From: Hyphomonas sp. CY54-11-8
Lineage (GTDB): Bacteria > Pseudomonadota > Alphaproteobacteria > Caulobacterales > Hyphomonadaceae
Direction of reading: 5' to 3'
DNA length: 64,000 nucleotides
Assembly (NCBI RefSeq): GCF_000682735.1
Contig: NZ_AWFD01000036.1
Span: 1 to 64,000 of the forward strand
The notes beneath the pieces are model-generated. The model had not been told where the DNA came from, ran no database searches, and was given only the letters and a program-made list of their open reading frames with translations. The position numbers and the translations under genes were made by a program. Shown piece by piece: positions 2,489-45,952 of this stretch. The first letter of the stretch is position 1. The number at the start of each line of letters is the position of its first letter.

Positions 2489-2516
2489 TTATACACTTAC
2501 GTCATTTGTGCTCAAT
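2489..2516 (+). promoter_or_regulatory. Island operator/promoter element, copy 1
   Basis: TTATACACTT at 2489-2498 and TTGTGCTCAA at 2506-2515 form the two halves of a dyad, 63 bases before the acyl-CoA dehydrogenase start. The same arrangement recurs nine more times in intergenic regions of the island. That it is a regulator site overlapping a sigma-70-like promoter is inference. Confidence 0.6.
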
Positions 2517-2578
2517 TTTTAACGGAAATGCGCAAATGGGGGCGGACCAGCTTGGATTGAGAACAACAGGGGCAGACA

Positions 2579-3739
2579 ATGGATTTTCAACTAACAGAAG
2601 ACCAAAGGGACCTCCAGGATATGGCGCGCAAATTTGCACGCGCCGAGTTGATGGATCTCTCGCGAGACATGGAAGAAAAGGCGATGCCCCTGCCCGATGC
2701 CATGCGCCGCAAGTACGGCGAAATGGGTTTCTTGGGGGTCAACCTGCCGACCGAATATGGTGGCCTCGGCCTCGGCCACCTCGAAGCGCTGCTCGTTCTG
2801 GAGCAATTTGCCATGGTCTCTCCGGCTGTCGCCTGGCCGATTTTCGAAAGTCTGACGGGTCCTGTGCGCACGGTCCAGCACTTTGCCTCCGACACGTTGA
2901 AGGCCCGCATCATTCCAGACGTAATCAAGGGGGAGAAGATCGTTGCGGTATCGATGTCAGAACCAAATGCCGGCACAGCCCTGACGGACCTGACAACTCG
3001 TGGACGCATCGAAGGCAACGAGATTGTTATTTCGGGGCAGAAACGCTGGTGCTCGGGCGGCGCCCATTCTGACATCTACATCGTCTATTGCCGCCTTGAG
3101 GACACACCTGGCGCCAAGGGCATCGGCGCTGTTCTCGTCGAGAAAGAGCGCGATGGCATCAGTTTCGGACGCCCGGAAGAACTAATGGGATTTCGTGGTA
3201 TTCCGTCTGCTGATATCTTTCTTGACGATGTGCGGGTCCCACTCGACAATATGATTGTACCGGCCGGCGGCTTCGCAAAACTGATGAGCGCCTTCAGCCT
3301 GGAACGGTGTGGAAACGCAACCATGGGACTGGGCATTGCGGCAGCTGCGCTCGAAGACGCGACAGAATATGCCCAGGAGCGAAAGCAATTTGGAAAACCG
3401 ATTGTCGAGTTCCAGGCGATCCAGATGAAGCTCGCGGACATGGCCATGAAAGTTGAGGCGGCTCGGCTGTTGATCTACCGCGCGGCAGTCAGCGCGAGCA
3501 AAGGCCTGCCATCTGTTTTTGAATCAAGCGTGGCGAAATGCTTTTCCAACGAAATGGTGCGTGAAGTTGCGGCAAACGGACTTCAGATCATGGGCGGATA
3601 TGGGTATTCAAAGGAGTACAGGATGGAGCAGCGTGTGCGCGACAGCTTTGCCTGGGGCATCGCCGGCGGCACAACAGATGTCCAAAAGACCAACATTGCC
3701 GCAGCCATGGTCGGACGGAGATTCAATCAGCGCAGCTGA
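2579..3739 (+). CDS. Acyl-CoA dehydrogenase
   Basis: A 386-residue FAD flavoenzyme of the acyl-CoA dehydrogenase family. It has the N-terminal helical domain, the SMSEPNAGTALTDL stretch of the beta domain, and the C-terminal helical domain with RKQFGKPIVEFQAIQMKLADM. The position usually occupied by catalytic Glu in YEGT-type enzymes reads AGGTTDVQ, while E242 in FSLER sits where isovaleryl- or long-chain-type enzymes keep the base, so activity is plausible. It would oxidise an acyl-CoA to the 2-enoyl-CoA and pass electrons to ETF. It stands alone behind operator copy 1, so it is probably monocistronic within the regulon. The GGTT variant is common among steroid- and terpenoid-type dehydrogenases; the substrate is unknown. 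Confidence 0.9.
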   Translation: MDFQLTEDQRDLQDMARKFARAELMDLSRDMEEKAMPLPDAMRRKYGEMGFLGVNLPTEYGGLGLGHLEALLVLEQFAMVSPAVAWPIFESLTGPVRTVQHFASDTLKARIIPDVIKGEKIVAVSMSEPNAGTALTDLTTRGRIEGNEIVISGQKRWCSGGAHSDIYIVYCRLEDTPGAKGIGAVLVEKERDGISFGRPEELMGFRGIPSADIFLDDVRVPLDNMIVPAGGFAKLMSAFSLERCGNATMGLGIAAAALEDATEYAQERKQFGKPIVEFQAIQMKLADMAMKVEAARLLIYRAAVSASKGLPSVFESSVAKCFSNEMVREVAANGLQIMGGYGYSKEYRMEQRVRDSFAWGIAGGTTDVQKTNIAAAMVGRRFNQRS

Positions 3740-3932
3740 CCGGCAGGCCATTGACGCATGGCCAGAGGCCCCGGGCGCGGGAAATCAGGGCGCGGCCCGA
3801 CGGAGAAACCTAGCACATCGACACAGAATACCTCCGTTTCTGAGGGTTCATTTGCAGCGATCGCATTATGATCCGTACCCTAATAGACCGACATACAATT
3901 TAACCCGCACTGAACACCGATGCCGGCAGACC

Positions 3933-5129
3933 TCAGTCTCGGACGAGCAGGAGCGAACCACCAAGCGGTCCGCCTCCGGCCGCTGCAACGGCAATATCCG
4001 CCTTTTTCAGCTGCCGCTGTCCGGCGCGCTTCCACAACTGGCTACATGCCTCATGAACATACCCCAATCCATGTGTCCGCCCCCCGGACAATTGTCCGCC
4101 ATTCGTGTTGATCGGAAGCGTGCCCTCGCGGGAAATACGCGCGCCACCTTCGATGAAACGGCCGCCTTCACCGCGCTCACAAAAGCCAAGATTCTCGAGC
4201 CAGATGAGTGTCAGAATGCTGAACCCGTCATAGAGCTGGGCCGTATCGACATCCTCCGGTGTCAGGTCCGTCCGGGCCCACATCATTTCCCCAACGCCCC
4301 GCGTTGCCATTTCCGTGAGCGGCAGCTGGTCCCACGAATACGGCACATTGAGTGCCGAACCGATGGCCTCGATGCGTATCGGCGGGTTTGGCTGATCTCT
4401 TGCGATATCACTCCGTGACAGGACGATGGCTGTCGAGGCGTCGCAATGAACGTCGCAGTCAAACATGCGAAGCGGTGTCGAGATCATCCTGGATGACATA
4501 TAGTCGCCCAGTGTCATCGGGTCGCGAAAGACCGCCTTCGGGTTCAAAGCCGCATTTGCTCGGCACGTCAGCGCAATCTGCGCAAGCTGTTCACTGGTCG
4601 TTCCGTACTCATGGAAATGTCGCTGCGCGAAGATCGCTATCAGGTTGATTGCGGAGTACACATTAAATGGTGTGTACCATCGCCACATGTAGCTTCCATC
4701 GCGCCCTTGAGTCTTGTTGGTGAGCGCCGATGCGCTTTTTGACACGAGCCTTGCACTCGATTCCGTGATGGTCCTGAACACAAGGACGTGCCGGCATAGG
4801 CCGGTCGCAATCGCCATCGCACCATTGATGATACCAGCCAGAGGCCCCGGCCCTTCATAGCCACCGCCATACCAGTTTACTTTCAGTCCCAGCATGGTCG
4901 CAGCGGCATGCGAACCAATGGGAGAAAAACTGTCTCCTGCATTGTTGTGATCGCCGGGCCAGCACGCAATCCCGTCAATGTCTGTTGGGTTCAGCCCTGC
5001 ATCCCGGATCGCTTCGAGACATGCATCGGCTGTCAGCTGTGACGCGGTTTTCTGGGATGGTCGTCCAACTTCGGACTGACCAATGCCAGTAATCGCAACA
5101 TCCTTTTCATAGAATCGATCGAAGTTCAT
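3933..5129 (-). CDS. Thiolase-like protein (lipid-transfer/SCP2-thiolase type), lacking the nucleophilic Cys
   Basis: A 398-residue thiolase-fold protein starting MNFDRFYEKDVAITGIGQSE and ending with the family C-terminal region INTNGGQLSGGRTHGLGY. In the stretch that carries the acyl-accepting cysteine in true thiolases the sequence reads VNWYGGGYEGPGP, with no Cys. This matches lipid-transfer-protein-like members that act as retro-aldol lyases on side-chain CoA thioesters together with a DUF35 partner. Its start overlaps the stop of the upstream DUF35 gene by 4 bases, supporting a translationally coupled complex. An aldolase rather than thiolase role is inference from family knowledge (Ltp2-DUF35 type). 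Confidence 0.85.
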   Translation of the reverse strand: MNFDRFYEKDVAITGIGQSEVGRPSQKTASQLTADACLEAIRDAGLNPTDIDGIACWPGDHNNAGDSFSPIGSHAAATMLGLKVNWYGGGYEGPGPLAGIINGAMAIATGLCRHVLVFRTITESSARLVSKSASALTNKTQGRDGSYMWRWYTPFNVYSAINLIAIFAQRHFHEYGTTSEQLAQIALTCRANAALNPKAVFRDPMTLGDYMSSRMISTPLRMFDCDVHCDASTAIVLSRSDIARDQPNPPIRIEAIGSALNVPYSWDQLPLTEMATRGVGEMMWARTDLTPEDVDTAQLYDGFSILTLIWLENLGFCERGEGGRFIEGGARISREGTLPINTNGGQLSGGRTHGLGYVHEACSQLWKRAGQRQLKKADIAVAAAGGGPLGGSLLLVRD

Positions 5130-5542
5130 TGCGCAGCCTCGAACAGGGGCAGCCAGACATCCTCAATCTGTTCGAATACGACCACAACCTCCATGCCGAT
5201 CAACACATCGTCGGGGTCACAGTTCACAATATTGGATAGAAATCTCAATCCGGTCTGCTCGACCAGTTCGACGATCGCAATGACAAAAGGAACAACGAGG
5301 CCCGGTGCCCAGGCCTGGTGATTGATCGTGAAACTGACGACCCGCCCGCGCCCCGACACTGGTTCTGACGAAACATCCATGCCCTGGCATGAGGGACAGA
5401 CGGGCTGGGGCGGGTGAAACAGGTCAGAACAAGATCGGCATTTGTAGATTAGCAAATGTCCGTCGCGACCACCTTGCCAGAAGGGGGTGTTTTCAGCGGT
5501 TAGCTGAGGAAGCTTTCGGGCAAATTTAGCTTCGGCACTCAC
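5126..5542 (-). CDS. DUF35 OB-fold/zinc-ribbon protein
   Basis: A 138-residue partner protein with a rubredoxin-like zinc ribbon (CRSCSDLFHPPQPVCPSC, two CxxC pairs) and an OB-fold C-terminal part (GRGRVVSFTINHQAW onward). GTG at 5542 is chosen because GGAGG lies 8 bases upstream and the protein then begins at the usual place before LPQLTAENTPFW. ATG at 5590 would add 16 residues with a weaker ribosome site. DUF35 proteins form complexes with thiolase-like lyases, and the thiolase-like gene follows with a 4-base overlap. Transcription probably starts at operator copy 2, shared with the divergent transporter. Confidence 0.85.
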   Translation of the reverse strand: MSAEAKFARKLPQLTAENTPFWQGGRDGHLLIYKCRSCSDLFHPPQPVCPSCQGMDVSSEPVSGRGRVVSFTINHQAWAPGLVVPFVIAIVELVEQTGLRFLSNIVNCDPDDVLIGMEVVVVFEQIEDVWLPLFEAAQ

Positions 5543-5605
5543 AGAATTGTCCTCCTCCGAGTCTGACGGCGCAAAACTTCCTCTTGTCATACTGCCACGA
5601 GCCGC

Positions 5606-5634
5606 GCAAAACAGAAATGCAAAAAGTGTATAAA
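5606..5634 (-). promoter_or_regulatory. Island operator/promoter element, copy 2 (divergent)
   Basis: The strong half reads TTATACACTT on the minus strand (5624-5633); the other half is poorer (ATTTCTGTTTTG on the minus strand). It lies between the DUF35/thiolase operon and the MFS-FAH-MFS operon, so it could serve both directions. Confidence 0.5.
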
Positions 5635-5662
5635 ATATAGGGGCGCTTGCGGGGAGGTTTGA

Positions 5663-6970
5663 ATGCGAAGCGACGAGGCGGATAGCGCCAGAATTCCGGG
5701 GTCTGCCTGGCGCGCTCTTGCAGTGCTTACCCTGATATATGTCTGCCACTCGATCGACCGATCCGTGATGTCGATCGTGATTGAACCGATCAAGACAGAA
5801 CTCAATCTCAGTGACAGTCAGATCGGTATATTAGGTGGGCTTATCTACGCGGTGCTTTACGCCGTTGCCGGTTTGCCGCTGGGATACCTGATCGACCGTG
5901 TGAACCGCCGCAACCTCCTGGCCGGACTGGTGGTCGTGTGGAGCGGATTTACTGCGCTTTGCGGATTCACCCAGAACTACATACAATTGCTATTGGTGAG
6001 AGCTGCAGTCGGCGCCGCTGAGGCGGGCGGAGCCCCAACAGCCATATCCCTCATCAGCGATTTTTTTCCGGAAAAGCGTCGCTCAACGGCCATCAGCATC
6101 TTTTGGCTGAGCACAGCGATCGGCACGGCCCTGAGCTTCGCACTCGGTGGACTGGTCGCTGCACAATATGGCTGGCGCGCGGCATTTCTTGTCGCCGGCG
6201 CGCCAGGACTGGTTCTGGCGATTATCCTCCTGCTCACAATTCAAGAACCGGTTCGGGGCAGCTCTGATCCGGCCACCTCAACCGCCTCTGATCACCCACC
6301 TTCTCTACGGGACGCATTTGTCTTTACCGTATCCAACCCCGCGTTTGCCAATGCCTTCGTTGCGACCGCTTTGAAAGCAGCCGTTCTATCGGGCGTGCTG
6401 GTCTGGGCAGGCTCCTACCTCATACGGGTTCAGCACTTGCCAATTGCGAATGCTGGACTGGTCATTGGAGCCTGTATTGCAGTGTTCGGCGGAGCCGGGT
6501 CGCTGCTCGGTGGATGGCTTGGTGACCGGCTGTACAAATTGGGGGGCACACGCCTCATACCGGTTGGTCCGATGCTAACCAGTATTGGGACCGCACTATG
6601 CGTTGCCGTTTTCGCATTGACTTCGAGCCTGTATATCGCAGTGGCGGCGTTTGCGGCATTCGAAGTCGCGAGCCGGATGTATTCGGCCCCTTCCTATGCC
6701 TTCATCGTCAGTACGGTGGATCCCGGAATGCGCGGCCTTGCGGTGTCCTCGCTTCAGGTCTGTGCAAACTTGATCGGCTACGGCTTCGGTCCCTTTATCG
6801 TTGGAGTTGTGAGTGATGCGTTCGGCGGAACCAACTCCATTCGATACGGATTGTCGGGCCTTTGCGTCGTCAGCCTGTGGGTGGCCCTGCATTACTATCT
6901 GGCATTCCGGTACGCTTCAAAACCCGCCCGCACTTCAGCCCATTCAGACACCGTGGAGAATTTTCGATGA
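5663..6970 (+). CDS. MFS transporter
   Basis: A 435-residue integral inner-membrane protein with about twelve hydrophobic segments and the major-facilitator loop motif after helix 2 (GYLIDRVNRRNLLAG). The N-terminal pattern (LTLIYVCHSIDRSVMSIVIEPIKTEL) resembles anion:cation-symporter/spinster-like carriers used for organic acids. GGAGG lies 5 bases before the ATG. The downstream hydrolase start overlaps its stop (ATGA at 6967-6970). It probably imports a catabolic substrate or intermediate; the substrate is not readable from sequence. Confidence 0.85.
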   Translation: MRSDEADSARIPGSAWRALAVLTLIYVCHSIDRSVMSIVIEPIKTELNLSDSQIGILGGLIYAVLYAVAGLPLGYLIDRVNRRNLLAGLVVVWSGFTALCGFTQNYIQLLLVRAAVGAAEAGGAPTAISLISDFFPEKRRSTAISIFWLSTAIGTALSFALGGLVAAQYGWRAAFLVAGAPGLVLAIILLLTIQEPVRGSSDPATSTASDHPPSLRDAFVFTVSNPAFANAFVATALKAAVLSGVLVWAGSYLIRVQHLPIANAGLVIGACIAVFGGAGSLLGGWLGDRLYKLGGTRLIPVGPMLTSIGTALCVAVFALTSSLYIAVAAFAAFEVASRMYSAPSYAFIVSTVDPGMRGLAVSSLQVCANLIGYGFGPFIVGVVSDAFGGTNSIRYGLSGLCVVSLWVALHYYLAFRYASKPARTSAHSDTVENFR

Positions 6971-7971: not shown

Positions 7972-7979
7972 GACGCCAG

Positions 7980-9227: not shown

Positions 9228-9311
9228 AACTCAGCGTCGACGCAAACGCGGAAAGTCCAGTTACGCAATGACGACAGCGGATTCCTGGGCCGCGAAAATA
9301 TCTTGTTGACA

Positions 9312-9342
9312 TTTAGTACACTTTCCCGAAATGTGTGCAAAA
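9312..9342 (+). promoter_or_regulatory. Island operator/promoter element, copy 3
   Basis: TTAGTACACTT (9313-9323) and ATGTGTGCAAAA (9331-9342) form a clear dyad (ACACTT...AAATGTGT) 41 bases before the TonB receptor start. A TTGACA at 9306-9311 lies just upstream as a possible -35. Confidence 0.6.
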
Positions 9343-9382
9343 TCTAGCATGAACATGCATGCAGAGTTTTTGGGAGGATTTC

Positions 9383-11653: not shown

Positions 11654-11677
11654 GATCTCATTGTCGGCACCTGTTGA

Positions 11678-11714
11678 GCGCGTCCCTATCCTCCACCGTA
11701 GGGACGCGCTTCTT
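11678..11714 (+). terminator. Rho-independent terminator after the TonB receptor
   Basis: An 11-bp stem GCGCGTCCCTA/TAGGGACGCGC (11678-11688 and 11699-11709) with a 10-base loop is followed by TTCTT. The next gene starts at 11732, so it may only attenuate read-through. Confidence 0.75.
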
Positions 11715-11731
11715 ACTTTCAGAGAACACCC

Positions 11732-13955: not shown

Positions 13956-14056
13956 GCCCATCCTCCTCCCGATTGTTCCAAATCTGACGCTTGCACTCTT
14001 TGTTGAACGACCATACGCCCGGTTCACGCTGATCCAAGCGAAGAGGAGCTTGCATC

Positions 14057-14075
14057 GTTTGACTCCAAGTCAAAC
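14057..14075. promoter_or_regulatory. 19-bp palindromic operator, copy A (putative TetR site)
   Basis: GTTTGACTCCAAGTCAAAC has perfect 8-bp arms and a 3-base centre. It lies 49 bases before a TetR gene and about 100 bases before the divergent AttH-like gene. A near-identical copy occurs at 38007-38025 beside the second TetR gene. Confidence 0.7.
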
Positions 14076-14123
14076 GGAGTGGATGACCTTGCCTTGAATA
14101 CTCGCTGAAGAATCGCCGGAAAA

Positions 14124-14744
14124 ATGTCCACAAAGATTGAAACGCTCGACAGGATCATGGCCTCGGCCCGCAAGGTCTTCGCAGTTACGGGTCTGAAGCG
14201 CGCGACCATGACAGGGATTGCCGAAGATGCCGGTGTCACCAAGCAACTTCTCTATCACTACTACCAGAGCAAAAATGATCTGTTTTCAGCCGTGCTCAAC
14301 CAGCAGTCTGAAACGATCCTGTCCGCACTCGGCAACCATGAATTTCAGAGTGGAGATCCGGCCTTTGCGCTGAGGGCCATCCTGGAACTGGCTTTTGATC
14401 AGTATAAGAACGACCCCTATCTTCCGGCGCTCGCACAGGAGGCGATAGCCTTTCACAATGAAGTCGGCCCCGAAGACGGCAGGTTCGCCGCCCTGGCGCC
14501 AGCCCTGAACGAAAAGATGGCAGCGCTCATTCAACGCGGTATCGATACAGGCAAATTCAAATCGAACATTGATCCGAACCTGTTTTCTGGCCTTGCGATC
14601 CTTGTAACGCTTGGCGGATTCTACAACAGCTACATGCTTTCGAGTCTACTTGGCTTTGATACGCGATCAGAAGAAGGGGCCGGTCTATGGCGAAGCTTCG
14701 CGATTGACTTCCTGCTCAATTCCATCCGCATAGCCAAGGATTAG
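14124..14744 (+). CDS. TetR/AcrR family transcriptional regulator
   Basis: A 206-residue protein. The N-terminal helix-turn-helix is clear at about residues 25-50 (TMTGIAEDAGVTKQLLYHYY, then SKNDLF), followed by a helical ligand-binding domain. TetR proteins act as ligand-released repressors and normally autoregulate. The palindrome 49 bases upstream is its most likely site. Which of the two TetR genes in the window recognises the palindrome, and which (if either) reads the separate ten-copy dyad, cannot be told from sequence. Confidence 0.88.
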   Translation: MSTKIETLDRIMASARKVFAVTGLKRATMTGIAEDAGVTKQLLYHYYQSKNDLFSAVLNQQSETILSALGNHEFQSGDPAFALRAILELAFDQYKNDPYLPALAQEAIAFHNEVGPEDGRFAALAPALNEKMAALIQRGIDTGKFKSNIDPNLFSGLAILVTLGGFYNSYMLSSLLGFDTRSEEGAGLWRSFAIDFLLNSIRIAKD

Positions 14745-14753
14745 CTGTCGAAT

Positions 14754-14784
14754 TTATTGGACATTATTTCGACTTTTGTATAAC
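14754..14784 (+). promoter_or_regulatory. Island operator/promoter element, copy 4
   Basis: TTATTGGACATTA (14754-14766) and TTTGTATAAC (14775-14784) form the dyad. TTGGAC and TATAAC are spaced 16 bases apart, so it can also be read as a sigma-70-type promoter. It heads the SDR/YciI pair with a leader of about 125 bases. Confidence 0.55.
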
Positions 14785-18935: not shown

Positions 18936-18966
18936 TTTCATACATAAACGCCATAGTTGTTCAAAA
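18936..18966 (+). promoter_or_regulatory. Island operator/promoter element, copy 5 (divergent)
   Basis: TTTCATACAT (18936-18945) and AGTTGTTCAAAA (18955-18966) sit between the ferredoxin operon and the Rieske oxygenase operon. The halves are weaker matches to the other copies. Confidence 0.5.
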
Positions 18967-24060: not shown

Positions 24061-24090
24061 TCTATACATTTTTGCCTTATGTGTATAATA
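24061..24090 (+). promoter_or_regulatory. Island operator/promoter element, copy 6 (divergent, best dyad)
   Basis: TATACAT (24063-24069) and TATGTGTATAAT (24078-24089) give a near-symmetric dyad, TATACA...TGTGTATA. It lies between the ligase/reductase operon and the DUF2889/dehydrogenase operon. TATAAT in the right half looks like a -10 for the plus strand. Confidence 0.65.
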
Positions 24091-29002: not shown

Positions 29003-29034
29003 TTATTGACACTTTTCTCGTTATTGTTCAATAA
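29003..29034 (+). promoter_or_regulatory. Island operator/promoter element, copy 7 (divergent)
   Basis: TTATTGACAC (29003-29012) and TGTTCAATAA (29025-29034) are near-perfect inverted halves between the CMD operon and the VOC gene. TTGACA within the left half can act as a -35. Confidence 0.65.
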
Positions 29035-33900: not shown

Positions 33901-34416
33901 CGGAATTTCGGCATCGATGAAATTGTACTCACTCTGCGCCGGAAGTGATGAGGATTTTGCGCCGTGGTCGTCGCCGGCGATGGCAAGGACCCCGCCCTTG
34001 CGGGAGACGCCCGCATAGTTGGCGTGCTTGAAGGCATCGCCTGAGCGGTCGACGCCGGGCGCCTTTCCGTACCAGAGGCCGAAGACACCCTCGACCTGCG
34101 CCCCGCTGAACAGTCCGACTTGCTGAGATCCCCACACAGCCGTCGCGCCGAGGTCTTCATTGATGGCGGGAAGGACTTCGATGCCTGCCCGCGAGAGACG
34201 TTGGGCCTCATTTTCAAGTTTCATGTCGAACGTTGCGAGCGGCGAGCCTCTGTAGCCAGACACAAATCCGCCTGTCCGCCAGCCCTTTGCCTGGTCGAGC
34301 CGGGCGCGCTCAAGGAGCATGCGGACAAGGGAATCGACCCCTGATGTCAGGATGGACACGTCGTGGCTCTCAAAACGCTCAGACCTAAGATCAGCGCTTG
34401 ATCCTGAATACGGCAT
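30967..34416 (-). CDS. Indolepyruvate:ferredoxin oxidoreductase-like fused 2-oxoacid oxidoreductase
   Basis: A very large 1149-residue thiamine-diphosphate enzyme. It has an N-terminal pyrimidine-binding/alpha domain, a TPP domain with CPGCPHNSS and GIGCHYLV, cysteine-rich segments CEGCGDCSAKSNC and CNVDAACTDGFC for Fe-S binding, a gamma domain starting LAGVGGQGITSL, and a C-terminal DUF6537-like part. This layout fits the fused aerobic indolepyruvate ferredoxin oxidoreductases of proteobacteria. It should oxidatively decarboxylate a 2-oxoacid to the acyl-CoA and reduce ferredoxin or another carrier. Its place behind operator copy 8 and before an FAH gene suggests a 2-oxoacid intermediate in this pathway rather than amino-acid turnover. 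Confidence 0.92.
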   Translation of the reverse strand: MPYSGSSADLRSERFESHDVSILTSGVDSLVRMLLERARLDQAKGWRTGGFVSGYRGSPLATFDMKLENEAQRLSRAGIEVLPAINEDLGATAVWGSQQVGLFSGAQVEGVFGLWYGKAPGVDRSGDAFKHANYAGVSRKGGVLAIAGDDHGAKSSSLPAQSEYNFIDAEIPVLAPSTIREVLEYGVKAFDLSRYSGLWSAMTVVAELMDSTANLTVDAGMFATNYPDYPFSGDPDLWIREKDTPLQQEERVRLKRLPAALAFARANSFDQTLLEAPHARFCLVTQGKAYRDVTQALSDLGITADVAKSLGLRIYKPGLVWPLEPQRALDAIRGTQSVLVVEERRSLVESQLRKVGYGLKDSQRPALLGKFDDEGRPLISEFGELSADDVARAIGKWLPESLHTEQMRSHLARIKVAPSNTPALASRAPFYCPGCPHNSSTVVPEGSRASAGIGCHYLVQYMPRQTSTFTQMGAEGITWVGQAPFTSEKHIFTNLGDGTYFHSGILAIRQAVAAKVNITYKVLFNDAVAMTGGQSVDGPLSPAAMAAQIAAEGVSELVVVSDDPASHETATGFPSGVNFYDRSELDTVQKRLRDVPGTTVIIYVQTCATELRRKRKRGLTADPSKKIFINERVCEGCGDCSAKSNCMAVEPVETDFGQKRRIDQSACNVDAACTDGFCPSFVTLEGAELAPPKKKDATPSADLAAPSLTKLTGDSVFNLVLAGVGGQGITSLSAMLCMAGHFEGLAVNAVDALGMAQKGGGVYSHIRMSPSPEAVVSARVGSGGADTVLTNDIVLAHSETILPLMSADKTRVVANHRILPTADMIGARDARHERASMQRQIETNSSSFTVLDADRVVREELGDPIFANMCLLGSAWQRGHIPIGLASIVRAMEEVGVKVKQNRRAFELGRQMALDEGWASVKTISRKPLSIDELIDKRTAELVAYQDRAYAERFRAALRPLQTANAQAEGDFVRIAAENLFKLMAYKDEYEVARLYASDEYRQTLRSNFSGRYKVRLHMAPPLIARKKEDGTLQKMKLPSFFFKLMPLLAAGKRLRGSWADPFGWTEERKMERALRDEYIEQIARLAGNLSQVNEDAARRLLAAPRLIRGYGHIKAASVEDYKVEVREAETGLVSQCGTPKKTRLIARG

Positions 34417-34485
34417 GTCATCTCCTTCATCACACTGGAGTGCCTCGGCGATTTCTCTCCCCAGGCCGACCTTGCAGACAGTTTT

Positions 34486-34516
34486 TTATACACTTTTGAT
34501 TTATTCGTGTAATAAA
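34486..34516 (-). promoter_or_regulatory. Island operator/promoter element, copy 8 (divergent)
   Basis: TTATACACTT (34486-34495) and CGTGTAATAA (34506-34515) form a good dyad between the oxidoreductase gene and the first P450. Confidence 0.6.
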
Positions 34517-34685
34517 TAACCCCTAGCACGCAATGGGCTGGTGAATCCATGCTTTTTTCGACATATATTGGATTTATGTCCATTTATATGGTGGTGATGG
34601 CAGGGGCAATGGACTGTCCACGCCGGAAAAGGTTTGCTGGCGATGAACATGACGAATAGTTCTGTTCAATAATGGAGGAAGAAAA

Positions 34686-35984
34686 ATGGCGGACATACCG
34701 ACGATGGAGTTGCCGCAGGAGGACGTGGCAAAAGCCTATGCGGGCGTTAGTCAAAACTACCGCGGCACGGTCGAGGACCCACACCCGATTTATGCAAGGA
34801 TGCGACGAGAGGCCCCCGTTTATCGGGGTGACTTCATGGCCGAGATGGGAGTGCCCTCAATCGCTCGTCCCGATGAGAGCCGGCCAGTCTACACCCTGTT
34901 CAAGCACAATGACGTAATGGCTGTACTGCGCGATGCGCGCCGTTTCACGAGCGGCTTCATTGCTGAGGGTCTGGGCGCCTTCATGGACAATTTCATTCTC
35001 ACTGGAATGGACGGCGAAGAACACAAGGCGGCGCGCGCACTCCTGACACCAGTGTTTTCGCCCAGCGTCGTAAATCAGCTGAAGGCCGAACGTATCGATC
35101 CGATCATTCGTGACGAATTCGTCCTGCCACTTGCCGCCCGCCCCGAGAAATCCGCTGACCTCATCGCTGACTTTGGACTCTGGTTCCCAATAAGAGTCAT
35201 CTATTCCCTTATTGGATATCCGGACAACGACCCGGACGCCATTTCCCAATATGCTGCCTGGGGGCTCGACATACTGGCGGGTCCGCAAGTCGATCCTTCA
35301 AAAGCGTCCCAAGCACGCGAAAAAGCGATGCATGCTGCAAAGGCTATCTATGATGCGACGCTTCCGATTATCGAACAGAGGCGTGCAATGGACGAAAGCG
35401 GCAGTGATTTGATCAGCCTGCTGATTGCCGCCGAAGAGGATGGTAACCGTCTGACTGACAATCAGATTGCGACATTCGTGCGCGGCCTGCTGCCGGCAGC
35501 TGCCGAAACGACAACGCGAACATTCGGGACTGCGATAAGCTGCCTGCTGGGCGACCCTGACCTTTTGGATCGAGCCAGACAGGATCAGTCGGTGATAGCC
35601 AAAGTTGTTGATGAAGCTGTTCGCTTCGAACCGACCGCAACTTTCAAGGTCCGGGAAGCCGCCGAGGAGGTTACAATCCGGGATGTCACCATCGAAAAGG
35701 GTGCGATGGTGTCCTGTATCGTCTCATCTGCAAACCGCGATGAGGACGTATTCGAGAATGCCAACCTCTTCGATCCTTTCAGACCGCAAAAACCGTCCTT
35801 CGGATTCGGATTCGGCCCGCACATGTGCATCGGATTGTTCGTAGCGAAAGCCGAAATCATCGCGGCGATCAACAGCTTGCTCGAACACCTTCCGGGACTG
35901 CGGCTCGATCCGAACCAGCCACCTCCCAAGGCGGTGGGCCTGCAGCTCAGGGGACCCGAGCGTGTCGATGTCGTCTGGTCATAG
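34686..35984 (+). CDS. Cytochrome P450 (paralogue 1)
   Basis: A 432-residue soluble class I P450. The heme-binding loop FGFGFGPHMCIG has C381 as thiolate ligand. The I-helix reads PAAAETTTRTF (acid-Thr pair intact), and the K-helix ExxR lies in DEAVRFEPTATFKVREAA. It should hydroxylate a hydrophobic substrate with electrons from ferredoxin. The start follows AATGGAGGAAGAAAA. It is clearly paralogous to the P450 at 39.7 kb (shared FTSGFI, MDGEEHK and GFGPHMCIG). No ferredoxin gene is adjacent, so it probably shares the ferredoxin/reductase at 18.7 and 21.1 kb. Confidence 0.93.
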   Translation: MADIPTMELPQEDVAKAYAGVSQNYRGTVEDPHPIYARMRREAPVYRGDFMAEMGVPSIARPDESRPVYTLFKHNDVMAVLRDARRFTSGFIAEGLGAFMDNFILTGMDGEEHKAARALLTPVFSPSVVNQLKAERIDPIIRDEFVLPLAARPEKSADLIADFGLWFPIRVIYSLIGYPDNDPDAISQYAAWGLDILAGPQVDPSKASQAREKAMHAAKAIYDATLPIIEQRRAMDESGSDLISLLIAAEEDGNRLTDNQIATFVRGLLPAAAETTTRTFGTAISCLLGDPDLLDRARQDQSVIAKVVDEAVRFEPTATFKVREAAEEVTIRDVTIEKGAMVSCIVSSANRDEDVFENANLFDPFRPQKPSFGFGFGPHMCIGLFVAKAEIIAAINSLLEHLPGLRLDPNQPPPKAVGLQLRGPERVDVVWS

Positions 35985-35995: not shown

Positions 35996-36027
35996 TTATT
36001 GAACACTTATGCCTTTATTGACTAATT
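35996..36027 (+). promoter_or_regulatory. Island operator/promoter element, copy 9
   Basis: TTATTGAACACTT (35996-36008) and ATTGACTAAT (36017-36026) lie 61 bases before the amidohydrolase start and just after the P450 stop, marking a new transcription unit. The right half is degenerate. Confidence 0.55.
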
Positions 36028-37164: not shown

Positions 37165-37278
37165 CAGATGCATGGGCAAACTATGAATTCTTGCACGTAA
37201 GGTCCAGTTTCCGCTTTAATATCAAGCCGAATACCTCCAATTTCAAGCCATCAGGCTACTCATGAGGCTTCCTGAGTT

Positions 37279-37974
37279 ATGACAGACGCTTTATCTGACG
37301 ACGATGCGGGACGCGGCAGCTTTTCGGCAGCCAACGCCGACGATCATACTGAAATCAAGGCTCGCGTTAGAAATGTCGTCAAAGACCAACCGACGCGGCC
37401 TGACCCACGATCGGAACGAACCGTCGAGCATATTCTTCAAGCGACGTTCAAGCTACTGCGCGAAGGCGGAAGCGAAAAACTGACAATCCGGTCTGTCTGC
37501 AACGAGGCAGAGATTTCGCGCGGCACCTTCTATCGCTATTTTGAATCCAAAGAAGACCTTATGGATTCAGCAACCCGCTATCTACGCGATCAGACGGATG
37601 CGGGCGTTTATGCATCTGTGGAGGGGCTCGAAGACCCGATCGAGCGATTCCAGAAGTTTCTCGACTTTGCGTTGGACAATCCGGGCACACGGAGTTCATC
37701 CCGGCTGCTCGATACCGAGCCTGAATTCATCCTCAGATATTTCAGAGAGAATTTTTCTCATTTCAAGAACCGACTGTCCCGCGCGCTCGAGCCTGTCTAT
37801 GACAGCTGGGAAAGTGAGCTTGGGGCGGAAATCGATCGAGAGCTCGTCTCGGAGCTTTTCGTCCGGTTTGCCCTCAGCGCGACACTTGTGCCGATCGACC
37901 GGGATCGAAAGAATATGGCGCAGGAGCTAAGACGCCTTGCACGCCTTATTCGCACGGCACCCAAAAAGGAATAG
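37279..37974 (+). CDS. TetR/AcrR family transcriptional regulator
   Basis: A 231-residue regulator. The HTH lies unusually late, at residues about 70-95 (SEKLTIRSVCNEAEISRGTF, then YRYFESKEDL), after a charged, probably disordered N-terminal extension of roughly 45 residues. A ligand-binding C-terminal domain follows. The palindrome copy B begins 33 bases after its stop and precedes the FAD-oxidoreductase/P450 operon, so it could be a local repressor of that operon; the other TetR is an equal candidate. No copy of the ten-member dyad is seen directly upstream. Confidence 0.88.
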   Translation: MTDALSDDDAGRGSFSAANADDHTEIKARVRNVVKDQPTRPDPRSERTVEHILQATFKLLREGGSEKLTIRSVCNEAEISRGTFYRYFESKEDLMDSATRYLRDQTDAGVYASVEGLEDPIERFQKFLDFALDNPGTRSSSRLLDTEPEFILRYFRENFSHFKNRLSRALEPVYDSWESELGAEIDRELVSELFVRFALSATLVPIDRDRKNMAQELRRLARLIRTAPKKE

Positions 37975-38006
37975 TCGTTAGCGATTTGCCGTTTCGGTGC
38001 CGGTGG

Positions 38007-38025
38007 GTTTGACCCCGAGTCAAAC
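38007..38025. promoter_or_regulatory. 19-bp palindromic operator, copy B (putative TetR site)
   Basis: GTTTGACCCCGAGTCAAAC has 7-bp perfect arms and differs from copy A (14057-14075) at only two positions. It is about 110 bases before the FAD oxidoreductase start. Confidence 0.7.
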
Positions 38026-38135
38026 GAAACAGCCCGTCGTCACGTTGGCATTGGCGACGAATTCCATACGGTAGCCCTCCAGAACAGCGCGCGCGAGTTC
38101 AGATAACAGCCAGTGTCAAATTGGCGGGAGGAACA

Positions 38136-39716: not shown

Positions 39717-39744
39717 TCAAACTGCCTCCACGGAGATCCATATC

Positions 39745-41025: not shown

Positions 41026-41066
41026 GCGATCAAACACCACACACCAACGTAAACGGGACACATGCC

Positions 41067-41423
41067 ATGAGCGCTCCGGATAACGACCCCTATACCAGCT
41101 TCATTCATGCGCAGGTGAGCGCCTGGAACAACGGGGACAAAGAGGCCTTTCTGGCCGCCTACAAATCAATTGCGCCGGGCAAGCTGACAATCGAATATGT
41201 TGGCCGGACTCCCCCGACGGATGGATGGGCGGTGCTTGAGCAGATGTGGACGAATACCAACGCAATCGTGAACATCGAGGAATGTGTGCTGATTGCGAAC
41301 GGCAACGAAGTCGCCTGCCACAACCGCAACCACATGCCATCTCGCGATATGACCATCGAAACGATTGAAGTCTATTCATTCAATGGCGAAGATCTCGCCA
41401 TAAGATATTTCGTAAAACAATAG
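41067..41423 (+). CDS. SnoaL/NTF2-like protein
   Basis: A 118-residue cone-fold protein. The pattern HAQVSAWNNGDKEAFLAAYKSI near the start, followed by a beta-rich half ending YSFNGEDLAIRYFVKQ, fits the SnoaL/NTF2 superfamily (isomerases, hydratases, cyclases, binding proteins). An acidic residue in the cavity could serve in isomerisation like a ketosteroid isomerase, but no catalytic assignment can be made by eye. It lies between the P450 and a DapB-like reductase in the same operon. Confidence 0.75.
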   Translation: MSAPDNDPYTSFIHAQVSAWNNGDKEAFLAAYKSIAPGKLTIEYVGRTPPTDGWAVLEQMWTNTNAIVNIEECVLIANGNEVACHNRNHMPSRDMTIETIEVYSFNGEDLAIRYFVKQ

Positions 41424-41459
41424 ATGCCGCGCTCCGCTCGGCAGGAAGGCCACTAAGTC

Positions 41460-42587
41460 ATGACGCAACGACTCAAAGTCATGGTCTGGGGGCCAGGAAA
41501 GCTTGGCAGTATAGCAATCTGGGAAATCCTCCAGAACCCGGCATTTGAACTGGTCGGGGTCGGCGCGTATTCAGACCGCAAGCAAGGTGTTGATGTTGGC
41601 GCCCTGCTCGGACTGCCCGACATCGGACTGCTTGCAACCACGGACCGCAAGCGCCTGATGGGCGAACACGCCGATTGCATCATCTACACCGCGCATGATC
41701 GCGGCACCTATCACACGGACGAGGAAATCCTCGAATTGCTCGCAAACGGCCATAATGTCATTACGCCTTTGCCGTACCAGAACGCCCATCTGTTTCGCGA
41801 AGAGGCCTTCACCGAAAAACTGCACGCGGCGTGCCGAAAGGGACAATCGGTCTTTCATGCCACTGGGATTGATCCGGATGTTGTCAGCGACAGGGTTTTG
41901 ATGTCACTGACCGGTCTTTGTACCGACATTCAGTCGATTACCATGCAGGAATATTGGAATTGCGGATCCGCCAATCCCGATTCGCTCAAAATGGTCGGGT
42001 TCGGGGACACTCCGGAACAGGCAGAGTCCAAGGAGCTGCCGGCTAGAGTTGCTGAGAATTTTCTGCGATCAATCGGCGCGACAGCTGAAAAAGTTCTCGG
42101 GCGACCGTTTGATGATATCCGGCTCGTTCATGAATACATCAGAGCGCCGCATGATCTCGCCACTGCCTTGCCTATCCGGGCCGGCCAGGTGGCCCGCATT
42201 GCGCACCGGATCGAGGGATACATTTCCAGTAAACCATCAGCACCATTCTTCGCTGTTGAGTACAACTGGCTGATGGATGATGTCATGCTGCCTCAAACCG
42301 TTCGGCCGGGGCAGTATTACCAGATCGAGATCGAAGGGCGCCCTTCAATCAGGGCCAGCATCGACTTGAAGACCTCACTGGAAAGCGAAGCCCCTTTCTA
42401 TGACGTTGGTTCGATGAAATCCGAACCGAGCTATCACGCGACCATCGCCCCTTGCCTGCAAGCGGTCACGCATGTCTGTCGCGCCGGGCCTGGAATCCTG
42501 CCATCGTTCGGCCCGGGCCTGCATTGGACACATGACTATGCCAGCCCGGTATCTGATGTGGATGCAGTTGTGAACACCCGAACATAA
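41460..42587 (+). CDS. DapB-like NAD(P)-dependent dehydrogenase
   Basis: A 375-residue Rossmann protein related to dihydrodipicolinate reductase-like and 2,4-diaminopentanoate dehydrogenase-like proteins. Its N-terminal motif MVWGPGKLGSIAIWEIL is the dinucleotide site. Close relatives occur in mycobacterial and sphingomonad catabolic clusters without a proven substrate. The middle segment FHATGIDPDVVSDRV is typical of this group. The operon position suggests reduction or oxidation of a P450 product. Confidence 0.78.
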   Translation: MTQRLKVMVWGPGKLGSIAIWEILQNPAFELVGVGAYSDRKQGVDVGALLGLPDIGLLATTDRKRLMGEHADCIIYTAHDRGTYHTDEEILELLANGHNVITPLPYQNAHLFREEAFTEKLHAACRKGQSVFHATGIDPDVVSDRVLMSLTGLCTDIQSITMQEYWNCGSANPDSLKMVGFGDTPEQAESKELPARVAENFLRSIGATAEKVLGRPFDDIRLVHEYIRAPHDLATALPIRAGQVARIAHRIEGYISSKPSAPFFAVEYNWLMDDVMLPQTVRPGQYYQIEIEGRPSIRASIDLKTSLESEAPFYDVGSMKSEPSYHATIAPCLQAVTHVCRAGPGILPSFGPGLHWTHDYASPVSDVDAVVNTRT

Positions 42588-42595
42588 GGCAAACG

Positions 42596-43585
42596 ATGAC
42601 TGACCATGTTGCGGTTCGCGGTGACGCTCTGGGCGCCCCGGAAGACTATGATCTCGTTTCCTTCGATCCGGGTATGCCGGGACCAGGAAATGTCCGGTTC
42701 CGCATCAGGGCAGCGGCTGTCAATTTTGTCGATGTCCTGGTTGCCAGCGGTCGCTATCAGGTGAAACCTCCGACACCCTTCATTCCGGGGGCCGAATGCG
42801 CAGGCGAAGTCGAAGCCGTCGGCGAAGGCGTGACAGGACTAGCGCCCGGCGACCGCGTGTTTACGAGCCGAATGGGCGGCGGCGCCTTTGCCACTGCATC
42901 AATTGCACGAGCCGAAGAACTGATTCCCTATCCAGACACGTTGAGTTTCGAGGAGGGCGCAACATTCAAGGTCAGTTTCACCACCGCCTACCTCGCACTT
43001 GTGGATCGAGCAGGTCTCAAGCCGGGCGACACCGTGCTGGTGCTTGGGGCTGCTGGTGGGGTGGGTCATGCTGCCGTGCAGATAGCCAAGGCGCTCGGGG
43101 CACACGTCGTTGCTTCGGCCTCTACAGAAGAAAAACGTGCGCTCGTCCGAACGGCTGGTGCCGATCATGTTCTCGACTCCCGGTCCGCGACCTGGCGAGA
43201 CGACCTGAAACATGTGCTCGACGGCAAGGCGCTGGACATTGTCGTCGATCCAGTCGGCGGTGAGGCAACAGAACCCGCCTTCCGTTCTCTCGGCTGGCGC
43301 GGTCGCCATCTGGTTATCGGTTTTGCGGGCGGATCGATTCCGAAAATCCCGACCAACCTTGCTCTTGTCAAAGGCATCTCCCTTGTCGGTGTCGATATCC
43401 GCCAATTCATGCTGTTTGAGCCGGACGCGGCAGCTCGAAACATCGCTCGGTTGTTCGACCTACACCAGCAACATGGCATCAAGCCGCATATAGGCAGACA
43501 GTTCGCGCTTTCCGATTTCGCCGCTGCCATGAACCTGGCCGCATCCGGCTCATGCACCGGACGCATTGTTCTCAATATGGACTAG
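42596..43585 (+). CDS. Zinc-less MDR-type quinone oxidoreductase/enoyl reductase
   Basis: A 329-residue medium-chain dehydrogenase/reductase of the NADPH:quinone-oxidoreductase group. It has GroES-like N-domain PGAECAGEVEAVGEGV and Rossmann motif VLVLGAAGGVGHAAVQIAKALG. The structural-zinc cysteines are absent. It could reduce an enone or 2-enoyl-CoA, or oxidise NADPH with quinones. It is the last gene of the five-gene operon and shares a CTAG with the convergent MFS gene, so both stop codons overlap. Confidence 0.87.
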   Translation: MTDHVAVRGDALGAPEDYDLVSFDPGMPGPGNVRFRIRAAAVNFVDVLVASGRYQVKPPTPFIPGAECAGEVEAVGEGVTGLAPGDRVFTSRMGGGAFATASIARAEELIPYPDTLSFEEGATFKVSFTTAYLALVDRAGLKPGDTVLVLGAAGGVGHAAVQIAKALGAHVVASASTEEKRALVRTAGADHVLDSRSATWRDDLKHVLDGKALDIVVDPVGGEATEPAFRSLGWRGRHLVIGFAGGSIPKIPTNLALVKGISLVGVDIRQFMLFEPDAAARNIARLFDLHQQHGIKPHIGRQFALSDFAAAMNLAASGSCTGRIVLNMD

Positions 43586-44943
43586 CTTGCCGAACCACGG
43601 AATGCATCGAGCGTTCGCTGATAAGGTCCAAGGCCGGTCAGGCACAGGACAAATCCAATCGCTGCGATGGGCGTGCAGGCCAATGACAAGGCATAGGGCA
43701 GTGCCTCATCGCTCTTGAAGACAAAGTCTGTCGCCAGCGCCACAATTGTCGGACCCAGACCAATGCCGAACAGTCCGCCAATCAGAAGATAAATCGCAAT
43801 TGCCTGGCCGCGCATACGGTTTGGCGTAATCTCCTGAACCACCGCGGGAGCAGCCGCCTGCGCAATCGCTGCTCCGCCGACGAGACAGCCAAGCATCAGA
43901 AGTGTCGTTTGCGGTGTTGGCCCGAGCGGCCACAGCGCAGCCATCGGCAACAGGATAACCCAGCCGACCAGCGTCACACGAAGGCGAGCGGCCTTGACGT
44001 TCCTGGCTCTCCAACGATCAGACAGAAAGGCGCTGATCAAGGTTCCGATCAGGCCCGACACAGCAATCATCATACCGAGTGTGAATCCGATCTCGACGCG
44101 CTGCATGTCGAACCGGCGTTCGAACAGGGCCGGCGCCCAGGCCAAGGCACCATAGCCGACAACGGCAATTGTGGCCGGGTAAACCAGTACACGTGCATAT
44201 GTTGAAATGTTTCGGCGCAGATAGGAGACAAACTCCGCGATTGATCCTTGCTTCGCTCTCATTTCAAGGGCCGCATCATCGCGCCGCTTCGGTTCCTTGA
44301 CCGCCAGGAGCGTCGCAACAAGAACAAACCCGGGGGCACCGGCAACCAGGAACGCGACGCGCCATTGGTCCATGTGCCCAATCCCCGGCAAAAAGACGCC
44401 GGAAGGATCAACCAGTTTGAAGATGAGCCCGCCGAGCAGAAGCGATGCGCCTGAACCAATCGCTAACGAGACATAGTAGACACCGAGCGCGCGCCCCCGC
44501 CTGTCCGGCGCGACATAGTCCGAAATGATGGAATAGGCCGCCGGTGCAAGTACGGCTTCGCCGATGCCGACCCCGACCCGACAAATCAACAGATCCCTGA
44601 AGCTGCCGGCGAAGCCGGACGCGATCGTCATCGCACTCCAGACAATCAGGCCAAATACGATCAGGTTGCGCCGGTGCGTGCGATCAACCAGGCGACCAAG
44701 CGGTATGCCCGCCAATGTATAAACAAGGGCAAACGCGTAGCCCTGCAGAAAACTAAATCCGGTATCCGAAATACCGAATTCGGCGCGAATAGGCTGTACG
44801 AGCAGCGCGGGCAATTGACGGTCGAGCTGGGAAAACAGCGTGACGGCAAACAGCACGGCAACGACGAACCAGCCATAGGCTTGGGATGGATAGGCCTCGT
44901 TCGGTTCCATGGATTGCTGTTGACTGATCTTGGGATCACGCAT
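43582..44943 (-). CDS. MFS transporter (third of the island)
   Basis: A 453-residue membrane protein with about twelve helices. The start segment AYGWFVVAVLFAVTLFSQLDRQLPALLVQPIRAEF and the loop GRLVDRTHRRNLIVFG show it is a spinster/ACS-type carrier, similar in type to the transporter at 5.7 kb. The ATG at 44943 has no strong ribosome site. It is probably a downstream partner of the SDR at 45.0-45.9 kb, 88 bases away. It is a candidate importer or exporter of a pathway acid. Confidence 0.83.
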   Translation of the reverse strand: MRDPKISQQQSMEPNEAYPSQAYGWFVVAVLFAVTLFSQLDRQLPALLVQPIRAEFGISDTGFSFLQGYAFALVYTLAGIPLGRLVDRTHRRNLIVFGLIVWSAMTIASGFAGSFRDLLICRVGVGIGEAVLAPAAYSIISDYVAPDRRGRALGVYYVSLAIGSGASLLLGGLIFKLVDPSGVFLPGIGHMDQWRVAFLVAGAPGFVLVATLLAVKEPKRRDDAALEMRAKQGSIAEFVSYLRRNISTYARVLVYPATIAVVGYGALAWAPALFERRFDMQRVEIGFTLGMMIAVSGLIGTLISAFLSDRWRARNVKAARLRVTLVGWVILLPMAALWPLGPTPQTTLLMLGCLVGGAAIAQAAAPAVVQEITPNRMRGQAIAIYLLIGGLFGIGLGPTIVALATDFVFKSDEALPYALSLACTPIAAIGFVLCLTGLGPYQRTLDAFRGSAS

Positions 44944-45031
44944 GCCTATCTCCAGGCAGGGTGCATCGCGAATCGGGCATTCGGCAAGGTTCTCAATGTT
45001 GGAAGAAATTGTCTGTCGTCACCTGCGGGGC

Positions 45032-45859
45032 TTACATCTCGTTGAGACCGGACCGGGACATGAAGTTGATCATGTCGTTCATGGTCGGCGTATGCGCGGA
45101 AAAACCACCATCGGCGACGATCGTTTGTCCCGTGATTGCAGAGGCGGCATCGCTTGCCAAAAACGCGACAACATCAGCAATGTGCCTGGGCTCGAGCTTG
45201 TAGGGCACGAGATTGTGCCTCACCAGAATATCGACGACTTCCGGCAGAGTTGATTTGGAGGCGTCCTGCGGCGGCAAATAGCCAATCTGGACGGCATTCG
45301 CCCGTACACCGCGCTTGCCATATTGTGCAGCCAGCGACTTGGCGAGCATCATCAGGGCAGCTTTCGACGCTGCATAGGCCGAACGGGTAATTTCGCCCTG
45401 AAAGCCCATGCCCGAGGAAGCCAGCACGATACTTCCAGCTTTGCGTTCCAGCATGTCCGGGAGCACATGCTTGCAGCACAACATCGCGCCCTTGAGATTG
45501 ACCGCCATCGCCCGGTCCCAGATCTCAGGATCCATCGAGATAACGTCGCGGTCGTGCTGCTGCATTTCAAGATCAAGGGCGGCCGCATTCGCGTAAAGAA
45601 TATCGACCCTGCCGAAAACATCCTTCGCTTCATCGACCATCGCCTTGACCGAAGCCTCGTCGACCACGTCAACCTGTACGGCGTGCGCTTCAAGACCGTC
45701 GGAGTTCAGGCCTTCTGCGACCTTCCGCGCAGCATCAATACTGATGTCGGCAATCACGACCTTGGCGCCCATGTCACCAAGAGCTAGCGCTGATGCTCGG
45801 CCAATACCGCCCGCCCCGCCGGTTATAACTGCCACGCGCCCCAGAAGGCTGTTCGCCAT
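45032..45859 (-). CDS. Short-chain dehydrogenase/reductase
   Basis: A 275-residue classical SDR. ATG 45859 follows GGGAGG; the upstream frame to 45883 lacks a site. It has VITGGAGGIGRASALALG, a variant NAA motif (ILYANAAALDL), and catalytic SAYAASKAALM. It resembles 3-oxoacyl/alcohol dehydrogenases of catabolic clusters. It lies behind operator copy 10 on the minus strand, divergent from the long amidohydrolase, so both would respond to the same regulator. Confidence 0.87.
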   Translation of the reverse strand: MANSLLGRVAVITGGAGGIGRASALALGDMGAKVVIADISIDAARKVAEGLNSDGLEAHAVQVDVVDEASVKAMVDEAKDVFGRVDILYANAAALDLEMQQHDRDVISMDPEIWDRAMAVNLKGAMLCCKHVLPDMLERKAGSIVLASSGMGFQGEITRSAYAASKAALMMLAKSLAAQYGKRGVRANAVQIGYLPPQDASKSTLPEVVDILVRHNLVPYKLEPRHIADVVAFLASDAASAITGQTIVADGGFSAHTPTMNDMINFMSRSGLNEM

Positions 45860-45919
45860 AATATTCCTCCCTGTCTTCCGCACCCATCAAACCTGATTTT
45901 GACAAGTTAGCAGAAAATA

Positions 45920-45952
45920 TGTATTGAACACTATATGCTTTTTTGTATAAAA
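45920..45952 (+). promoter_or_regulatory. Island operator/promoter element, copy 10 (divergent)
   Basis: TATTGAACACTA (45922-45933) and TTGTATAAAA (45943-45952), with TTGAAC and TATAAA 16-17 bases apart, lie between the SDR and the amidohydrolase operon. A long A/T-rich stretch follows. Confidence 0.6.

What the first reader, a model, noticed from the sequence alone, without database searches (positions are those of the whole stretch)
2489..45952. Ten-copy dyad element marks one regulon across a 43-kb catabolic island
Seen: left halves TTATACACTT or TTATTGAACACTT and right halves of the TGTGTATAA/TGTTCAATAA type recur at 2489, 5606, 9312, 14754, 18936, 24061, 29003, 34486, 35996 and 45920, all in intergenic promoter positions and five or six between divergent operons. 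The halves are inverted repeats about 10 to 13 bases apart. Several copies also contain a -35/-10-like pair (for example TTGAAC to TATAAA), so a regulator could overlap the promoter. The element was not noticed in the conjugative block. No regulator is known to me for this motif.
Basis: partly seen in the sequence, partly recalled or inferred. Interest (0 to 1): 0.78.

Follow-up and report, generated by a model that had tools for sequence, protein, structure and literature searches.

The report
Shared operator of a catabolic gene island
Eleven copies of one mirror-symmetric DNA switch sit at the promoters of a mobile set of degradation genes, and the same switch, tied to many of the same genes and probably to one of two repressor proteins in the set, occurs in related bacteria.

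Summary
The dyad is real and sharply defined: TTRNACA-N13-TGTNYAA, with exactly 13 bases between arms. All ten listed copies hold, and an eleventh lies at 34557. A matrix from the window's ten copies finds clusters of the same element in three related genomes, far above a Markov control. In the own 3.9-Mb genome, 6 of 7 matches with at most one mismatch lie in this island.

The three relatives (Hyphomonadaceae-type) carry a reshuffled island with the dyad still before many of the same genes. The island encodes two TetR proteins. TetR1 (14124-14744) has a different operator, CGTTTGACTNNNAGTCAAACG, with two copies in the genome: before TetR1 itself and before an amine-oxidase/P450 gene pair. TetR2 (37279-37974) is the probable owner of the wide dyad: a fifth genome has TetR2 but no TetR1 ortholog, and three dyads, one in TetR2's own promoter.

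Most likely TetR2 represses these promoters by covering the core promoter and is released by an unknown pathway compound. Binding and repression are inferred. It is a new member of a known kind (KstR-like regulon architecture), with an unusually wide operator.

The parts
2489..2515 (.). wide dyad, upstream of acyl-CoA dehydrogenase gene 2579
5607..5633 (.). wide dyad (weakest), between DUF35/thiolase (-) and MFS (+)
   Evidence: orthologous DUF35 has it in 3 of 3 relatives, one of these sites containing N bases
9314..9340 (.). wide dyad, centre 32 bp upstream of the predicted start of the TonB-dependent receptor
14757..14783 (.). wide dyad, upstream of SDR gene 14910
18938..18964 (.). wide dyad, between SDR-BphC genes (-) and Rieske oxygenase (+)
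24062..24088 (.). wide dyad, between acyl-CoA ligase (-) and DUF2889 (+)
29005..29031 (.). wide dyad, between CMD-like (-) and VOC-like (+)
34486..34512 (.). wide dyad, between IOR (-) and P450 (+)
35999..36025 (.). wide dyad, upstream of amidohydrolase 36088 and (same strand, downstream of it) TetR2
45924..45950 (.). wide dyad (exact), between SDR (-) and amidohydrolase (+)
14124..14744 (+). TetR1 (TetR_N, TetR_C_29)
14056..14076 (.). second operator CGTTTGACTNNNAGTCAAACG between AttH-like gene (name by eye) and TetR1
38006..38026 (.). second copy of that operator (2 mismatches), upstream of amine-oxidase-like gene 38121
37279..37974 (+). TetR2 (TetR_N, N-terminal extension), proposed regulator of the wide dyad

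Best explanation
The dyad is the operator of one island-borne regulon. TetR2, encoded downstream of a dyad-headed amidohydrolase gene, binds TATTTATTRRACAcTTTTgcaAAAAgTGTYYAATAAATA at about ten promoter regions, covers the -35/-10 region and keeps the uptake and degradation genes off. A substrate or pathway intermediate (unknown) releases it. Because the arms lie 20 bp centre to centre, about two helical turns, two TetR2 dimers may bind per site, with the N-terminal extension touching the A+T-rich flanks. TetR1 runs a separate small circuit through another palindrome at its own gene and at the amine-oxidase/P450 genes. Shown: the sites, their conservation, their linkage to the same genes, the second palindrome. 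Inferred: TetR2 as binder, repression, dimer number, effector, TetR1 as binder of the second palindrome.
For: Dyad constant in spacing and clustered in the island. 47 sites in four genomes, C at -8 and G at +8 in all (one promoter of SS_bin_111 is probably represented twice, at two contig ends). Linkage kept although gene order changed: AmdH1, TonB receptor, RieskeA, acyl-CoA ligase, DUF35 and AmdH2 have it in 3 of 3 relatives; IOR and SDR5 in 2 of 2 with a clear ortholog in the stretches fetched. In the 43 ORFs scanned between 433 and 51106, TetR1 and TetR2 are the only HTH regulators (40 ORFs, one, two). TetR1 has its own palindrome in four of four genomes, two copies genome-wide, reversed control 0. 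TetR2 lies downstream of a dyad-headed gene on the same strand in all four. G373 (2.7 Mb) has TetR2 at 43% identity and no TetR1 ortholog: best match 46.6 bits, on another contig, against 323-349 bits for the four TetR1 genes. Its single <=1-mismatch dyad lies about 7 kb from TetR2; three sites score 25.9-36.6 with 0.0 expected, one between SDR2 and TetR2. Centres only 26 and 32 bp from predicted start codons fit a repressor over the promoter better than an upstream activator.
Against: No binding, expression or start-site data. In the window TetR2 has no dyad of its own directly upstream, only before the gene ahead of it, with a 114-bp gap. TetR1 also co-occurs with the dyad in the four main genomes. 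G373 is one genome, and there the acyl-CoA ligase and TonB-receptor homologues have no dyad. G035 and G372 carry weak TetR2 relatives (30-31%) but no site of 16 bits or more (two of 13.6-13.7 in G372). Some orthologs lack the dyad: SDR2 in three of four genomes, CMD in two of three, DUF2889, VOC and P450a in G409. Genome-wide <=1-mismatch counts about equal the reversed-pattern control in two of three relatives (18/17, 15/15, 12/2); only the clustering stands out. DNA-binding proteins of other kinds (RovC domain, 53802-55540) lie in the mobile block. The 20-bp half-site distance is wide for one TetR dimer (recalled).
Confidence: 0.73

Rival explanations
1. TetR1 binds the wide dyad, as the regulator next to the 14757 copy.
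For: Co-occurs with the dyad in four genomes; a dyad lies just downstream of its gene; a weak partial match at 14105 came up in one model of the first motif search.
Against: A different exact or near-exact palindrome stands before TetR1 in all four genomes; the 14105 match scores -0.6 with the refined matrix; G373 has dyads but no TetR1 ortholog.
Confidence: 0.1
2. The dyad is a symmetric bidirectional sigma-70-type core promoter, not a repressor site.
For: Arms resemble TTGACA/TATAAT at 16 bp spacing in some copies; seven of eleven copies are between divergent genes.
Against: Four copies serve one direction only and keep both arms; proximal and distal arms are about equally -10-like; only 1 of 7 matches with <=1 mismatch lies outside the island; clusters of sites go with TetR2 orthologs.
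Confidence: 0.07
3. A regulator encoded outside the island owns the dyad.
For: Not excluded: only 43 ORFs of 433-51106 and ten ORFs of 50435-63405 (one shared) were scanned for HTH domains.
Against: Sites are clustered in the island; the island, judged by its TetR1 gene, is missing from 104 of 105 genomes of the family at E<=1e-20, yet operator and genes stay linked in other genera.
Confidence: 0.1

Closest known systems
KstR regulon of mycobacteria (PMC1995591, passages read)
   Same: TetR-type repressor; many copies of one palindrome over a large catabolic gene region, often between divergent genes; palindrome at kstR partly overlaps the -10 region; half-site TnnAAC resembles TTRNAC.
   Different: KstR palindrome is 14 bp (TAGAAC-N2-GTTCTA); here the arms are 13 bp apart, and TetR2 matches the KstR model far below its cut-off.
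EdcR of Caenibius tardaugens (PMC8700777, abstract and passages read)
   Same: Alphaproteobacterial TetR repressor of a catabolic cluster with P450, extradiol dioxygenase, IOR and TonB receptor genes (PMC7793797, passages); proposed operator overlaps -10 boxes.
   Different: Operator TnnCnnTACnAnTnGTAnnGnnA does not fit (by eye); EdcR has a TetR_C_11 domain, TetR2 has no C-terminal Pfam match at 1e-5; two main operons rather than about ten promoter regions.
MAB_4384 / QacR type wide TetR operators (PMC5895659, passages read; QacR pair of dimers only from titles in its reference list)
   Same: 27-bp inverted repeat bound by a TetR protein (MAB_4384); QacR binds as a pair of dimers.
   Different: MAB_4384: arms of 13 nt with a 1-nt spacer, at an efflux-pump promoter.

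Membership tests
TetR family (TetR2) | N-terminal TetR_N DNA-binding domain | tested here: met
   PF00440, 48.8 bits against cut-off 24
TetR family (TetR2) | all-helical TetR fold | tested here: met
   AlphaFold2 model with helices only, mean pLDDT 76.4; 22 Foldseek matches at E<=0.001, TMq 0.38-0.59, nearly all titled as TetR-type or transcriptional regulators, one (4gck) with an uninformative title
TetR family (TetR2) | binds a palindromic operator | not testable with these tools
   inferred from co-occurrence and from the site in its own promoter in G373
KstR regulator | KstR equivalog model above cut-off | tested here: not met
   TetR2 38.0 bits against cut-off 280
KstR regulator | operator TAGAAC-N2-GTTCTA | tested here: not met
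   arms of the wide dyad are 13 bp apart; compared by eye
EdcR operator | TnnCnnTACnAnTnGTAnnGnnA | tested here: not met
   compared by eye with the consensus of 47 sites
Island-specific catabolic regulon | same operator before orthologous genes in other genera | tested here: met
   misses listed in the full report

The most novel reading that the evidence does not exclude
The dyad is a portable promoter-operator cassette: a symmetric core promoter fused with a roughly 39-bp operator for two cooperating TetR2 dimers, so that gene blocks of a mobile island can be shuffled and flipped without losing control, while a second TetR with its own operator runs a separate tier of the same island.
Probability: 0.3. 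Interest if true: 0.65.

Novelty: new member of a known kind. Interest (0 to 1): 0.47.

Why it matters
It gives an unstudied catabolic island a draft wiring map, two operator types and two TetR regulators, each assignment testable with a gel shift. The operator can be used as a marker to find further genes of the pathway in other genomes, and the TetR2/dyad pair is a candidate sensor part for an unknown, perhaps polycyclic or terpenoid-type substrate (a guess from the enzyme classes).

Tried and rejected
TetR1 was my first candidate for the wide dyad and was dropped when its own palindrome appeared. Pattern matches 25474, 34643 and 14105 were dropped as non-sites. Plasmid searches of 1-48000 gave no syntenic relative. 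A search for TetR2 in 385 genomes of the class at E<=1e-35 found only the own genome. A one-base-wider dyad at the G035 Rieske promoter is a single case; two other gap-14 matches there were set aside, by their positions within homologue matches, as probably inside genes. Of the 12 off-island <=2-mismatch matches in the own genome, 9 were held as loci and scored, 3 were not. Agreement of left and right arm within a site is not above shuffles (0.534 against 0.546), so the arms vary independently. Two sites with N bases in G409 (37493, 69537) were left out of the 47. Paper searches; none of the listings showed this operator, but one search listed 15 of 383 papers and one search listed 12 of 22. 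Five papers were opened: passages of all five, and the outline with abstract of one.
Full report
Observation. The ten listed places were read directly and aligned in register. The common element is TTRWACA-N13-TGTWYAA. Scanning all gaps from 3 to 25 in the window shows a spike only at 13 (Poisson values are optimistic because the arms were taken from these copies). Expectation-maximisation on 26 intergenic regions, given no starting motif, returned nine of the ten sites in each of four models, and in the 34407-34695 region 34486 in two models and the unlisted 34557 in two. With a matrix from the ten sites the window has 13 positions at 14 bits or more, which are 11 distinct sites plus two offsets, and 0.0 expected in a Markov control. 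The cleanest check is that this window-only matrix finds site clusters in other genomes (below). In the other direction, a matrix holding only the 36 sites of the other genomes recovers the same eleven as the best distinct matches in the window (15.5 to 41.8 bits), while the reversed window has none at 15 or above; this second check is not fully independent, because those 36 sites had been picked with a matrix seeded from the window.

Genome-wide distribution. The assembly has 3,897,448 bases in 38 contigs and the window is the start of a 211-kb contig. Of 23 places with at most 2 mismatches, 11 lie in the window (9 of them matrix sites), and 6 of 7 with at most 1 mismatch (5 of the 6 being matrix sites). 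The reversed-pattern control gives 26, so the count alone is not unusual; the clustering is. One off-island copy (C33:257806, 18.8-19.8 bits) lies beside an ORF that looks by eye like a tyrosine recombinase.

Gene content. Pfam and NCBIfam scans give acyl-CoA dehydrogenases, thiolases, one with a DUF35 (ChsH2-type) partner, MFS transporters, a TonB-dependent receptor, SDRs, a BphC-like extradiol dioxygenase, a two-subunit Rieske oxygenase and a reductase, acyl-CoA ligase, FAH hydrolases, an indolepyruvate-ferredoxin-oxidoreductase-type protein (IOR), two P450s, two amidohydrolases, enoyl-CoA hydratase and 3-hydroxyacyl-CoA dehydrogenase. Among 43 ORFs scanned between 433 and 51106 the two TetR proteins are the only HTH regulators; beyond that, the mobile block has an IS3-type integrase and two RovC-domain ORFs. 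The mix recalls estrogen clusters (PMC7793797, passages) and, from memory, diterpenoid clusters, but the substrate was not tested.

Relatives. An alignment of TetR1 homologues found close loci in three genomes: Robiginitomaculum NORP13, Hyphomonadaceae SS_bin_111 and an uncultured Hyphomonadaceae bin. Whole-genome searches found the same three as G360/G409, G166/G410 and G198/G411 (the first pair was identical over 16 kb, the others agree in contig length and coordinates). TetR1 is in 1 of 105 genomes of the window's own family at E<=1e-20, the own one, so the island is probably acquired. In the three relatives, <=1-mismatch matches cluster on the TetR1 contig or, for SS_bin_111, on it and contig C34: 8 of 18, 8 of 15 and 7 of 12, while the whole-genome counts about equal the reversed control in two of the three (17, 15, 2). 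I fetched stretches where these clustered. There the window-trained matrix gives, at 14 bits, 14 positions against 0.3 expected in 60 kb, 7 against 0.1 in 40 kb, 7 against 0.05 in 20 kb, and 13 against 0.0 in 80 kb (offsets included). Forty-seven sites over the four genomes give the consensus TATTTATTRRACAcTTTTgcaAAAAgTGTYYAATAAATA, C at -8 and G at +8 in all. Two of them (G166 C9:134 and G410 C34:133) lie in near-identical contig ends and probably represent one promoter. Gene order differs between the genomes, yet the dyad stays with the same orthologs: AmdH1, TonB receptor, RieskeA, acyl-CoA ligase, DUF35 and AmdH2 in 3 of 3 relatives (two of the G409 sites, at AmdH1 and DUF35, contain N bases), IOR and SDR5 in 2 of 2 with a clear ortholog in the stretches, DUF2889, VOC and P450a in 2 of 3. 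Misses: SDR2 in 3 of 3, CMD in 2 of 3; acdA and MFS1 have no close ortholog.

Two operators, two regulators. The TetR1 upstream region in all four genomes contains another palindrome, CGTTTGACTNNNAGTCAAACG (exact in three, 2 mismatches in G409). In the window genome its 19-base core has two copies with up to 2 mismatches, at 14057 before TetR1/AttH-like and at 38007 before the amine-oxidase-like gene, control 0. In the stretches of G198 and G166 the one copy lies between TetR1 and the amine-oxidase-like gene; in G409 copies lie before both, and a third near TetR2. TetR1 is therefore probably spoken for. TetR2 lies downstream of a dyad-headed gene on the same strand in all four genomes (after AmdH1 in the window and G409, after SDR5 in G198 and, with a P450-like ORF between, G166). 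The discriminating case is G373: it has TetR2 (43% identity); a direct search gives no TetR1 ortholog (best 46.6 bits at E 4.8e-12 on another contig; the four TetR1 genes give 323-349 bits). Its only near-exact dyad in 2.7 Mb is about 7 kb from TetR2. The matrix of 47 sites finds three strong sites in the 39 kb fetched (25.9-36.6 bits, next best 2.1): before RieskeA, before AmdH1, and between SDR2 and TetR2, i.e. in TetR2's own promoter region. The acyl-CoA ligase and TonB-receptor homologues there have none. Weak TetR2 relatives in G035 and G372 (30-31%) have no site of 16 bits or more; the 3.6-kb loci of weak TetR1 relatives in G158 and G248 have neither motif. TetR1 and TetR2 homologues share longest-contig lengths in the protein database (52,711, which is the window's own or a very near sequence; 55,187; 57,125; 133,115; 305,901), which suggests they lie on the same contigs.

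Mechanism. Dyad centres lie as close as 26 and 32 bp to predicted start codons (DUF2889, TonB receptor), which leaves little room for a separate core promoter downstream, so the dyad probably overlaps it; this favours repression by occlusion. Start codons are predictions. The arms vary independently. A 20-bp centre-to-centre distance is about two helical turns and places both arms on one face of the helix; two dimers per site, as in QacR (titles cited in PMC5895659), are plausible. TetR2 has a conserved basic stretch before its HTH domain, part of it predicted as an extra helix at residues 25-34 in a model of moderate confidence, that could reach the A+T-rich flanks. These last points are inference.

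Placement. By architecture this works like the KstR regulon: a TetR repressor with many copies of one palindrome across a catabolic gene region (PMC1995591, passages). It is not KstR: model score and operator fail. Nor does it fit the EdcR operator (PMC8700777, passages). The paper searches did not show this operator; the library lacks most subscription papers, and two listings were capped. It is a new member of a known kind.

Noticed in passing
window 14056-14076 and 38006-38026: Second, unrelated operator-like palindrome CGTTTGACTNNNAGTCAAACG, two copies in the genome, probably TetR1's.
   Followed up: yes
window 52351-62103: IS3-type integrase, tandem RovC-domain ORFs, ArdA antirestriction, ParB and a signal-peptidase-type protein: a mobile or conjugative block beside the island.
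   Followed up: partly
L022 5807-5833 (G000:C33:257806): Single off-island copy of the dyad near a contig end, beside an ORF that looks by eye like a tyrosine recombinase.
   Followed up: partly
L092, G035:C18:147134: Rieske promoter of a more distant relative carries TCATACA-N14-TGTTCAA, one base wider than the dyad.
   Followed up: partly
window 41064-41423: Small ORF with a SnoaL/NTF2-like look by eye, but no Pfam match at E<=0.001, between the second P450 and a DapB-like dehydrogenase.
   Followed up: partly
L071 1-200 and L073 1-200: Two contigs of SS_bin_111 start with near-identical but not equal sequence around an AmdH1 promoter: a strain variant or a duplicated region.
   Followed up: partly
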